From an uncultured Pelagibacteraceae bacterium (GTDB taxonomy: Bacteria > Pseudomonadota > Alphaproteobacteria > Pelagibacterales > Pelagibacteraceae), in assembly GCA_902537665.1 (NCBI GenBank), contig CACBCE010000009.1, forward strand, positions 1-47,670: DNA of 47,670 nucleotides, written 5' to 3'. The number at the start of each line of letters is the position of its first letter. The stretch's first letter is position 1. The position numbers were made by a program, and so were the translations under genes. The notes beneath the pieces are model-generated. The model searched no databases and was not told where the DNA came from. It saw only the letters and a list, made by a program, of their open reading frames with translations. Shown here in pieces: positions 23,624 to 28,810 of this stretch.

Positions 23624-23730
23624 TTTTCTTACTCAAATTATTCATTAAGTTTTAAAATTTACTTACTTAAATTAATCAAATAGTAGTCTATATTATTAAT
23701 TTTTAGCGCATTATTACTAAAAAATTAATA

Positions 23731-23758
23731 TTTACAAACATAGATATTATTATATAAA
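23731..23758 (+). promoter_or_regulatory. Candidate promoter of 5S rRNA gene
   Basis: TTTACA (23731-23736) and TATAAA (23753-23758) are 16 nt apart, which would start transcription close to the mature 5' end of 5S rRNA at 23763. No 16S or 23S gene lies upstream in the window, so the 5S gene needs its own promoter or a very long read-through. The match is modest. Confidence 0.35.
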
Positions 23759-23762
23759 AACG

Positions 23763-23878
23763 TGCTGGCAATTATTGCGAAAGTGTTATACCCGATCCCA
23801 TCCCGAACTCGGCAGTCAAGCCTTTCAGCGCCGATGGTACTTTGTCTTAAGGCATGGAAGAGTAGGTCGTTGCCAGCA
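23763..23878 (+). rRNA. rrf: 5S ribosomal RNA
   Basis: A 116-nt gene. The first and last eight bases (TGCTGGCA and TGCCAGCA) pair perfectly as helix I. The interior has the conserved CCCGATCCCATCCCGAACTCGG helix III/loop C region and the GATGGTACT and GGAAGAGTAGGTCG segments of loop E and helix V. It is separated from 16S and 23S genes by at least the 23 kb island upstream. As I recall, this is the documented SAR11 arrangement in which hypervariable region 2 lies between 23S and 5S. It is followed after only 14 nt by rpmJ, with no hairpin terminator between. Confidence 0.95.
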
Positions 23879-23892
23879 TTTACTTGAAAATT

Positions 23893-24018
23893 ATGAAAAT
23901 TAAAAGTTCATTAAAATCCCTTAAGAAAAGAGATCTTAACTCTAAGTTGGTTAAAAGAAGAGGGCGAGTTTACATAATTAATAAGACAAATCCCAAATTC
24001 AAAGCAAGGCAAAAATAA
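23893..24018 (+). CDS. rpmJ: Ribosomal protein bL36
   Basis: A 41-residue basic protein of the large ribosomal subunit. It has the family's [14 protein letters not shown] start, an [22 protein letters not shown] core and the expected length. No cysteines are present, so this is the zinc-free (C-minus) form common in alphaproteobacteria. It begins 14 nt after the 5S rRNA gene and ends 6 nt before the next small gene, so it is probably read from the 5S promoter or one inside the 5S gene. It is too short for most gene-length cut-offs. Confidence 0.93.
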
Positions 24019-24024
24019 TTTTTT

Positions 24025-24135
24025 ATGGATAACGAAGACCATAAGAATACGTGGAATAATTTTACAAAGTTTGTTCTGTGGGGAACTGTCGCTGTCGTGG
24101 TAGTTTTGGTTTTAATGGCAGTTTTCTTGTTATAA
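24025..24135 (+). CDS. aa3-type cytochrome c oxidase subunit IV-like peptide
   Basis: A 36-residue single-helix membrane peptide. The N-terminal polar part has HKNTWNNFTKF (6-16), then WGTVAVVVVLVLMAVFLL forms the helix. The TWxxFTKxxxWG pattern is the signature of bacterial aa3-type cytochrome c oxidase subunit IV (PF07835), a small peripheral-contact subunit of the alphaproteobacterial terminal oxidase. It is shorter than most family members. Location between rpmJ and pntA recurs in alphaproteobacteria, which supports the call. It would sit in the inner membrane with the polar end inside. Confidence 0.75.
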   Translation: MDNEDHKNTWNNFTKFVLWGTVAVVVVLVLMAVFLL

Positions 24136-24144
24136 GTTTCTGGA

Positions 24145-25236
24145 ATGAAAGTAGGTTCTATCTTAGAAAATCAGAGTTTAGAGAAGAGAATAGCTGTAAC
24201 TCCCGAAATAGTTAAAAAATATCTCTCTCTTGGTTTTGAAATTCTCTTGAGTAAAGACTACGGATTGCATTTAGGAATTAATGATAAGGAATATTTAGAC
24301 CTTGGAGCTAAAATTTCAAATGATGATAAAGAAATCTTAGCTAATTCAGATGTAATCATTCAATTAAGAATGTTATCTGATGAAAAAAGTTCTTTAATCA
24401 AGGAAAATCAAAATTTAATTGGTATTTTTAATCCCTACGAAAATAAAGATATAATAGAAAATTTATCCAAAAAAAAAGTGAATGTTTTCTCATTGGAGAT
24501 GCTTCCTAGGATTACTAGAGCACAGTCCATGGATATATTATCATCTCAAGCTAATCTTGCAGGATATAAAGCTGTCATTGAGGCATTTTCAAATTTTGAA
24601 AAAGCTGTGCCAATGATGATGACTGCTGCAGGAACGATTCCAGCAGCAAAAGTTTTAGTTGTGGGAGCAGGTGTTGCGGGGCTTCAAGCAATTGCAACTG
24701 CTAAAAGAATGGGTGCGATAGTGTTTGCTACTGATGTAAGAATGGCTTCAAAAGAGCAAGTGGAGAGTTTGGGTGGAAAATTCCTAACTGTAGAGGGATC
24801 TGAAAACCTTGAAACTGACGGAGGATATGCAAAAGAGGCATCTGAAGAATTTAAAAAAAAACAGGAGAACTTATTGGCAGAAACTTTAAAAAAAATAGAT
24901 ATTGTAGTTTGTACAGCTTTAATCCCTGGAAAAAAAGCACCATTAATTATAAAAGAAAATATGTTAAACAATATGCAACCTGGTTCAGTAATATATGATT
25001 TAGCAGCTGTCCAAGGAGGAAATACAGCATATACAGAAGCAGATAAAGTAATTGAAAAAAATGGAATAAAAATAATGGGCGAGAACAATATTTTAAATAA
25101 ATTACCTATTTCTGCCTCTAATTTATATGCAAAAAATATTTTTAATTTTGTCAATAATTTATTGGATAAAGAAAAGAAAAAAATAAATATAAATTTAGAT
25201 GATGAGATAATTAAAAAGACATTGATGAGACAATAA
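24145..25236 (+). CDS. pntA: NAD(P) transhydrogenase subunit alpha, NAD-binding part (alpha1)
   Basis: A 363-residue domain I of the proton-translocating transhydrogenase, which moves hydride between NADH and NADP+ while protons cross the membrane. The N-terminal half has the alanine-dehydrogenase-like GSILENQSLEKRIAVTPE segment, a MLPRITRAQSMDILSSQAN block, and the NAD fold VLVVGAGVAGLQAIATAKR (about 171-189). It ends before the membrane helices, which are encoded by the next gene. This split into alpha1 and alpha2 is usual in alphaproteobacteria such as Rhodospirillum and is not a frameshift. It likely helps supply NADPH in an organism with a reduced central metabolism. Confidence 0.95.
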   Translation: MKVGSILENQSLEKRIAVTPEIVKKYLSLGFEILLSKDYGLHLGINDKEYLDLGAKISNDDKEILANSDVIIQLRMLSDEKSSLIKENQNLIGIFNPYENKDIIENLSKKKVNVFSLEMLPRITRAQSMDILSSQANLAGYKAVIEAFSNFEKAVPMMMTAAGTIPAAKVLVVGAGVAGLQAIATAKRMGAIVFATDVRMASKEQVESLGGKFLTVEGSENLETDGGYAKEASEEFKKKQENLLAETLKKIDIVVCTALIPGKKAPLIIKENMLNNMQPGSVIYDLAAVQGGNTAYTEADKVIEKNGIKIMGENNILNKLPISASNLYAKNIFNFVNNLLDKEKKKININLDDEIIKKTLMRQ

Positions 25237-28582: not shown

Positions 28583-28810
28583 TTATTTTTTTTCTGATTT
28601 AAAATTTTGAAATTTTTTATTAAACTTACTTATTCTGCCTTTATCCATTAACTTTTGTTTACCACCAGTCCAAGCAGAATGTGATTTTGGATCAATTTCT
28701 AGTTTTAGAACATCTCCCTCTGAACCCCAAGTAGATTTTGTTTCAAAAACAGTACCATCAGTCATTTCAACTTTAATTTTATGATAGTTTGGGTGAATTT
28801 TTTTTTTCAT
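28583..28810 (-). CDS. rpmE: Ribosomal protein bL31
   Basis: A 75-residue protein of the large ribosomal subunit. [19 protein letters not shown], the [30 protein letters not shown] core and RISKFNKKF identify bL31. The CxxC/C zinc ligands are missing, so this is the zinc-independent form, usual in alphaproteobacteria. It is followed directly by trcR and preceded by the suhB-like gene, which ends 35 nt upstream. Confidence 0.95.

What the first reader, a model, noticed from the sequence alone, without database searches (positions are those of the whole stretch)
23763..24135. 5S rRNA gene probably leads an mRNA for bL36, an oxidase peptide and transhydrogenase
Only 14 nt separate 5S from rpmJ, with no terminator, and the following genes are 6, 9 and 1 nt apart. 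A precursor joining a stable RNA to ribosomal-protein and energy genes would tie their synthesis to rRNA output. Processing at the 5S 3' end would then set the rpmJ leader.
Basis: partly seen in the sequence, partly recalled or inferred. Interest (0 to 1): 0.5.

Follow-up and report, generated by a model that had tools for sequence, protein, structure and literature searches.

The report
5S rRNA gene heading an mRNA
In the ocean bacterium group SAR11 the 5S ribosomal RNA gene seems to have its own promoter and no stop signal and runs straight into protein genes, so one transcript probably gives both a ribosome part and a message; a listed 'RNA motif' in the same stretch turns out to be a small protein gene.

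Summary
The window is SAR11 (Pelagibacteraceae). 5S (23764-23878) ends 14 nt before rpmJ; later gaps are 6, 9 and 1 nt, and no terminator-like site separates 5S from rpmJ. The layout is conserved: a same-strand ORF starts 6-28 nt after 5S in 112 of 117 family genomes examined; the next gene alternates between rpmJ and an epimerase. A promoter-like motif (TTTACA-N16/17-TATAAR) ends just before 5S, so transcription should start near its first base; none of 64 genomes has one as good in the 60 nt before the downstream ATG. Co-transcription with RNase-E-type release of 5S is the best reading; I had no RNA data.

The regulatory claim is weaker. In one SAR11 genome 10 of 17 stable-RNA genes with a same-strand ORF next lie within 30 nt of it, so compaction could explain the layout. 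The split of 5S from 16S-23S is in print, and a 2009 paper noted 5S near pntA.

Extra: Rfam RF01810 'pntA sRNA' (24021-24082) is the COX4_pro_2 coding sequence: 54 of 57 Rfam places overlap the Pfam hit, pN/pS is 0.11 there, and synonymous codon choice explains most of the pairing.

The parts
23731..23758 (+). promoter-like motif TTTACA-N16-TATAAA, ending 5 nt before 5S
   Evidence: sequence; such a motif scores >=10 of 12 in 88 of 116 family genomes, with the -10 end 6 or 7 nt before 5S in 77 and 5 nt in 6 of the 88; 50 of 69 genus genomes against 7.0% of shuffles. The generic single-sequence scan does not list this pair; it lists an overlapping 9-of-12 pair at 23725-23753, with no excess of sites in the region
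23764..23878 (+). 5S rRNA gene, only copy found in this genome
   Evidence: RF00001 91.1 bits; one match in G000
23879..23892 (+). 14-nt A/T-rich spacer, inferred site of 5S 3'-end cleavage and rpmJ leader
   Evidence: sequence; spacers 90% A+T over 112 genomes; cleavage inferred
23893..24018 (+). rpmJ, ribosomal protein bL36, type B (no cysteines)
   Evidence: PF00444 E 1.5e-16; NF002021 76.7 bits
24025..24135 (+). 36-aa aa3-type cytochrome c oxidase subunit IV-like peptide (COX4_pro_2)
   Evidence: PF07835 E 1.9e-11 (no NCBIfam match); pN/pS 0.175 over 52 genomes
24021..24082 (+). Rfam RF01810 'pntA sRNA' match; re-read as the start of the COX4_pro_2 coding sequence
   Evidence: 71.2 bits, cut-off 54; coding test; overlap count
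24145..25236 (+). pntAa, transhydrogenase alpha, NAD-binding part
   Evidence: PF05222, PF01262
25238..25546 (+). pntAb, transhydrogenase alpha, membrane part
   Evidence: PF12769
25546..26943 (+). pntB, transhydrogenase beta
   Evidence: PF02233
26950..27648 (+). transaldolase/fructose-6-phosphate aldolase-like gene, likely last of the unit (next is tRNA-Met on the other strand)
   Evidence: PF00923; tRNA

Best explanation
The single 5S gene of Pelagibacteraceae, cut off from 16S-23S by the O-antigen island, is transcribed from its own sigma-70-type promoter that starts at or within about two bases of mature 5S. There is no terminator, so RNA polymerase runs on into the next gene (here rpmJ, COX4 peptide, pntAa-Ab-B, transaldolase). 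An RNase-E-type cut in the A/U-rich 6-28 nt spacer would free 5S and leave an mRNA with a very short leader and no full Shine-Dalgarno site, which is usual in these genomes. Shown: the anatomy, its conservation, the promoter-like motif, the lack of an equally good internal promoter-like site or of a terminator-like site, and the presence of RNase E/G. Inferred: the joint transcript, the cut and the short-leader translation. Whether this coupling regulates anything is open; compaction may be the whole cause.
For: Same-strand ORF 6-28 nt after 5S in 112 of 117 family genomes (64 of 69; 28 of 28; 20 of 20; pooled). Promoter-like score >=10 of 12 before 5S in 50 of 69, against 7.0% of 3450 shuffles and 3 of 33 other stable-RNA genes of G012; same score in the 60 nt before the downstream ATG in 0 of 64. 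-10 end 6 or 7 nt before 5S in 77 of 88. Where an epimerase comes first, a start matching rpmJ's lies between 14 nt before and 5 nt after the epimerase stop in 32 of 39 cases (14 of them a 4-nt overlap), leaving no intergenic room for a promoter of its own. The next gene changes at least 7 times on well-supported branches while spacing stays short. Sister-family genomes keep 5S 89-96 nt after 23S in 4 of 4, with a complementary pair visible in the printed flanks, and none of the 11 fetched has an ATG-started ORF closer than 44 nt. RNase E/G in 5 of 5.
Against: No RNA data. The promoter motif is a consensus match; the generic scan of this window found no excess (19 against 21.9 expected). 28 of 116 genomes score under 10. 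In 90 of 114 genomes with a readable upstream neighbour that neighbour is co-directional, so read-through into 5S is possible there (not in this window). 5 of 69 genus genomes lack the tight layout: three close relatives have a convergent gene abutting 5S, one has rpmJ divergent, one has an 81-nt gap; in a sixth, G047, the epimerase is close to 5S but an opposite-strand 235-aa ORF separates it from rpmJ. A 3-base AGG-type match, supplied by the 5S end itself, stands before 74 of 112 downstream ATGs (background 26%), so translation of uncut RNA cannot be ruled out. Rho-dependent stopping was not tested. Tight spacing is ordinary in G012.
Confidence: 0.75

Rival explanations
1. Compaction without regulatory meaning: 5S and mRNA are co-transcribed only because intergenic space and terminators were lost across the genome. 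(This rivals the regulatory reading, not the joint transcript.)
For: In 1.2 of 1.343 Mb of complete genome G012, 27 of 34 stable-RNA genes are followed by an ORF, 17 on the same strand, 10 within 30 nt (nine tRNAs and 5S); ORF-ORF same-strand gaps have median 2 nt and 75% are <=30 (simple ORF caller).
Against: The next gene changed at least 7 times on supported branches with spacing and direction kept, but the swaps mostly involve one epimerase family, so they are weak evidence for selection.
Confidence: 0.6
2. 5S is terminated or fully cut off at its end, and rpmJ-pnt mRNA comes from a separate start within 5S or the spacer.
For: Not excluded by sequence; in the three convergent exceptions a promoter-like TTGACC...AGTAAA stands before rpmJ, read by eye, so rpmJ can probably have its own promoter there.
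Against: 0 of 64 score >=10 in the 60 nt before the downstream ATG (highest 9, mean 6.75); spacers of 6-28 nt cannot hold a promoter; no terminator-like site between 5S and rpmJ in the window; only 10 of 112 have TTTT in the first 12 nt after 5S.
Confidence: 0.12
3. A structured RNA (RF01810, the 'pntA element') between rpmJ and pntA controls pntA, as proposed in 2009.
For: The match is above Rfam's cut-off; weak residual pairing beyond the codon null (0.874 against 0.869, 6 of 1000 shuffles as high; 14 two-sided cells against 9.7, 12 of 1000), which ignores relatedness.
Against: It lies in a 36-aa COX4_pro_2 gene: 54 of 57 RF01810 places overlap PF07835 hits on the same strand; pN/pS 0.114 in the motif part, and 0.82 and 3.16 for the whole gene read in the other frames; 16 of 69 genomes lack the gene, with rpmJ 3-41 nt from pntA.
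Confidence: 0.05

Closest known systems
Split rRNA operon / HVR2 of SAR11 (Wilhelm 2007, PMC2217521, passages read; also PMC11898729, PMC3815206, PMC6018831, passages read)
   Same: Sole 5S separated from 16S-23S by a ~48 kb cell-surface gene island; seen here as 44-49 kb between 16S and 5S in four genomes.
   Different: The passages that I read do not mention a 5S promoter, a missing terminator, or 5S running into an mRNA.
pntA element, Rfam RF01810 (Meyer 2009, PMC2704228, passages read)
   Same: Same locus; the paper notes rpmJ before it in HTCC1062 and 5S or rmlB as the most frequent upstream genes in metagenomes.
   Different: Read there as a candidate structured RNA; here it is a protein gene.
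Stable RNA-mRNA operons such as E. coli tRNA-tufB, and mitochondrial tRNA punctuation (recalled, no call)
   Same: Stable RNA and mRNA share one transcript and are separated by processing.
   Different: Here the leading RNA is 5S rRNA, at the very start of the transcript; demonstrated in those systems (recalled), inferred here.

Membership tests
Stable RNA-mRNA transcription unit | stable RNA gene directly followed by a same-strand ORF without terminator | tested here: met
   112 of 117 genomes; no terminator-like site in the window between 5S and rpmJ
Stable RNA-mRNA transcription unit | promoter before the RNA gene and none between | tested here: met
   consensus level only: score >=10 in 50 of 69 before 5S, 0 of 64 in the 60 nt before the downstream ATG
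Stable RNA-mRNA transcription unit | joint transcript detected | not testable with these tools
   no RNA data held
Canonical rrn operon | 5S directly downstream of 23S | tested here: not met
   G000: 16S-23S on contig C1, 5S on C9
Rfam RF01810 pntA RNA | match above gathering score | tested here: met
   71.2 against 54 bits
Rfam RF01810 pntA RNA | non-coding, with covariation beyond coding constraint | tested here: not met
   in-frame CDS, pN/pS 0.114 in the motif part; pairing 0.874 against codon null 0.869; the small excess is not corrected for relatedness
COX4_pro_2 (PF07835) | profile match above cut-off | tested here: met
   44.4 against 22 bits
bL36 type B | NCBIfam PRK00831 match above cut-off | tested here: met
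   76.7 against 70 bits

The most novel reading that the evidence does not exclude
In SAR11 stable RNAs serve generally as removable 5' leaders of mRNAs ('stable-RNA punctuation', as in mitochondria). The 5S gene is a strong promoter-leader slot into which different genes are placed, and it ties bL36, a sugar-nucleotide epimerase and transhydrogenase to ribosome output.
Probability: 0.25. Interest if true: 0.7.

Novelty: new variant of a known kind. Interest (0 to 1): 0.5.

Why it matters
SAR11 are among the most abundant cells in the sea (general knowledge), and how they make balanced ribosome parts with one rRNA set and hardly any intergenic DNA is open. A family-wide 5S-mRNA fusion is directly testable in cultured strains. 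Re-reading RF01810 as a protein gene removes a supposed regulatory RNA and restores an oxidase peptide gene that lies in what the 2009 paper listed as an intergenic region of HTCC1062.

Tried and rejected
RF01810 as a regulatory RNA: rejected by the coding tests, apart from a small pairing excess told above. A promoter inside 5S: none at score >=10. A Shine-Dalgarno role for the AGG at the 5S 3' end: spacers are shorter when 5S ends in CAGG (median 9 against 13 nt, n 85 and 27, p 5.5e-5) and a 3-base match precedes 74 of 112 ATGs, all but about one owing to 5S itself. The 5S end type seems to follow clades, and AGG is paired in helix I of the window's 5S, so I put little weight on it. PMC9514032 (terms matched) has no 5S-rpmJ link in the passages read. 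PMC11109978 names a different 'pntA motif' in Streptomyces (passages). Paper searches gave listings in which I saw no report of this co-transcription or of the misfiled motif. I read passages only of the papers named in this report; seven of the twelve papers listed and those were seen as listings only, and the library lacks most subscription journals.

Rows dropped or chosen: the first spacing and promoter counts use the 69 genus genomes in which both 5S and rpmJ were found (of 71 with any of three features). I added 28 of the 30 loci that one search gave (its best 5S scores; two were repeats) and 20 genomes that I picked for completeness or other genera; neither is a random sample. One genome with under 60 nt before 5S was left out of the pooled promoter count (116 of 117). 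Of 30 sister-family 5S places I fetched 11. The coding test uses the 52 CDS of exactly 36 aa, G048 included; G004 (40 aa, changed end) was left out. The rpmJ start after the epimerase was found by a short DNA pattern, with 2 of 39 not found. In one search I gave 17 of the 30 loci to the Rfam scan.

Full report
What the window is. The window is contig C9 of a 1.04-Mb, 81% complete genome. Its closest matches among named records are Pelagibacteraceae, so it is SAR11. The 5S gene lies at 23764-23878. It is followed on the same strand by rpmJ (14 nt), a 36-aa COX4_pro_2 peptide (6 nt), pntAa (9 nt), pntAb (1 nt), pntB (1-nt overlap) and a transaldolase-like gene (6 nt), then by tRNA-Met on the other strand. 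The gene before 5S is a glycosyltransferase on the minus strand. So in this window 5S is not in an operon with its upstream neighbour and should need a promoter of its own.

Where the rest of rRNA is. In this genome 16S and 23S are on contig C1, at 134639-136113 and 136510-139262. Each genome with a 5S match had one (102 of 150 relatives; 174 of 198 of the order). In four genomes with 16S and 5S on one contig (G004, G009, G012, G029) the 5S lies 44-49 kb downstream of 16S on the same strand. This fits the published split operon around HVR2, the cell-surface island (PMC2217521, passages). In the sister family the 5S follows 23S by 89-96 nt in 4 of 4 genomes, and the printed flanks show a complementary pair (TTCACGTTTTGTTGA before, CTACTAAACGTGAA after) of the sort that forms a processing stem. 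23S was not found in 7 of the 14 genomes searched, two of them single-contig genomes; in G012 a 5-kb run of N covers the expected place.

Conservation. Of 69 genus genomes with both genes, 40 have 5S-rpmJ gaps of 6-25 nt. In 24 more, an epimerase gene starts just as close after 5S and rpmJ comes later on the same strand; in one of these, G047, an opposite-strand ORF lies between. Together 64 of 69 have a same-strand ORF 6-25 nt after 5S. A further 28 of 28 genomes from five genera and 20 of 20 picked ones, which add a sixth genus, agree at 8-28 nt; pooled, 112 of 117. The epimerase (one example, G082: PF01370 E 1.3e-32, no NCBIfam equivalog cut-off reached) ends between 14 nt after and 5 nt before an rpmJ-like start in 32 of 39 cases, 14 of them a 4-nt overlap; in 5 the gap is 20-56 nt and in 2 the start was not found. 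On a pntA tree (193 columns, quick method) the next gene needs 14-15 changes, at least 7 forced by well-supported branches; recombination at this island edge may inflate that. The five exceptions are three close relatives with a convergent gene abutting 5S, one with rpmJ divergent and one with an 81-nt gap.

Start signal. Aligned on 5S, a motif TTTACA-N16/17-TATAAR stands out. It scores >=10 of 12 in 50 of 69 genomes, against 7.0% of shuffles, and the same test passes 3 of 33 other stable-RNA genes of G012. Pooled it is 88 of 116; the -10 box ends 6 or 7 nt before 5S in 77 of those 88. That puts the expected start at about 5S +1. In the window the motif is at 23731-23758. A generic scan does not list that pair, since it asks for T at the last -10 base; it lists an overlapping 9-of-12 pair and finds no excess of promoter-like sites in the region, so the comparison carries the argument. 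In the 60 nt before the downstream ATG no genome of 64 reaches the same score.

Stop signal and processing. The spacers are 90% A+T and only 10 of 112 have TTTT in the first 12 nt after 5S. No terminator-like site lies between 5S and rpmJ in the window. RNase E/G is encoded in 5 of 5 genomes tested; that this enzyme matures 5S in E. coli is recalled. The downstream genes lack Shine-Dalgarno sites of 4 or more bases (1 of 112), as do most genes of G012 (11% have one, 3.5% in shuffled leaders), so a very short leader is no obstacle. A 3-base match stands before 74 of 112, owing to the 5S end (1 of 112 within the spacer alone; 26% of G012 genes); this would matter only if uncut RNA is translated.

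How special is it? In 1.2 of 1.343 Mb of G012, 34 stable-RNA genes were listed; 27 are followed by an ORF, 17 of them on the same strand, 10 within 30 nt. ORF-ORF spacing is as tight. So 5S leading an mRNA may be one case of a genome-wide habit, and compaction could explain it without any regulatory gain. One genome was checked for this. What goes beyond compaction is the promoter-like motif fixed at 5S and the kept direction through gene swaps; both speak for co-transcription, neither proves regulation.

The Rfam motif. RF01810 matches 24021-24082 (71.2 bits), starting 4 nt before the ATG of the COX4_pro_2 gene. Of 57 RF01810 places in relatives, 54 overlap PF07835 hits on the same strand; a 55th (G048) is a diverged 36-aa gene in the same place. 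The two others are weak and were not followed. All 54 genus genomes with PF07835 have RF01810, whereas 43 sister-family genomes with PF07835 do not, so the RNA model follows one clade of the protein gene. Over 52 genes of exactly 36 codons, pN/pS is 0.175 (0.114 in the motif part), against 0.82 and 3.16 in the other frames; codon third positions carry most variation. Rfam's stems are paired in 87.4% of cells, against 86.9% when synonymous codons are dealt anew (6 of 1000 as high), and two-sided changes are 14 against 9.7 (12 of 1000); relatedness is not corrected, so a small RNA effect is not excluded. In 16 of 69 genomes the gene is absent and rpmJ lies 3-41 nt from pntA. In three other alphaproteobacteria (G144, G146, G147) the PF07835 hit likewise stands just before an ORF that is pntA by eye, so the pairing looks old. 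The 2009 paper's remark that PntA protein rises while its transcript does not (passage) would then need another cause.

Verdict. Observation confirmed; joint transcript likely (0.75); a regulatory tie to rRNA output open. Novelty: a new variant of stable RNA-mRNA units, plus a correction of an Rfam entry.

Noticed in passing
window 24021-24082: Rfam RF01810 'pntA sRNA' is the COX4_pro_2 coding sequence; the Rfam entry appears misfiled.
   Followed up: yes
window 23893-24018 and 28583-28810: bL36 here is the cysteine-free type B and the only L36 match in this 81% complete genome; the L31 gene 4.5 kb away (PF01197) also lacks cysteines by eye, which would suit zinc sparing.
   Followed up: partly
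G012: tRNA-Gln 139712, Leu 484979, Pro 607235, Glu 611260, Trp 703351, Leu 706639, His 1126561, Arg 1183209, Leu 1190047: Nine tRNA genes stand 3-18 nt before a same-strand ORF, hinting at widespread tRNA-mRNA joint transcripts in SAR11.
   Followed up: partly
G009, G020, G023, G025, G026, G031, G037, G044, G047, G063, G066, G073, G079, G083, G084, G087: These 16 of 69 genomes lack the COX4_pro_2 gene before pntA, and the family search gave no match elsewhere in them; most of them are incomplete.
   Followed up: partly
sister family f2, e.g. G092, G104, G115: rpmJ lies about 1.7-2.6 kb before the COX4 gene, with alpha/beta-hydrolase-like and other ORFs between by eye; the 5S lies 34-78 kb upstream of rpmJ on the same strand in 9 of 9 same-contig cases, so the island seems to sit after 5S there and before 5S in SAR11.
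   Followed up: partly
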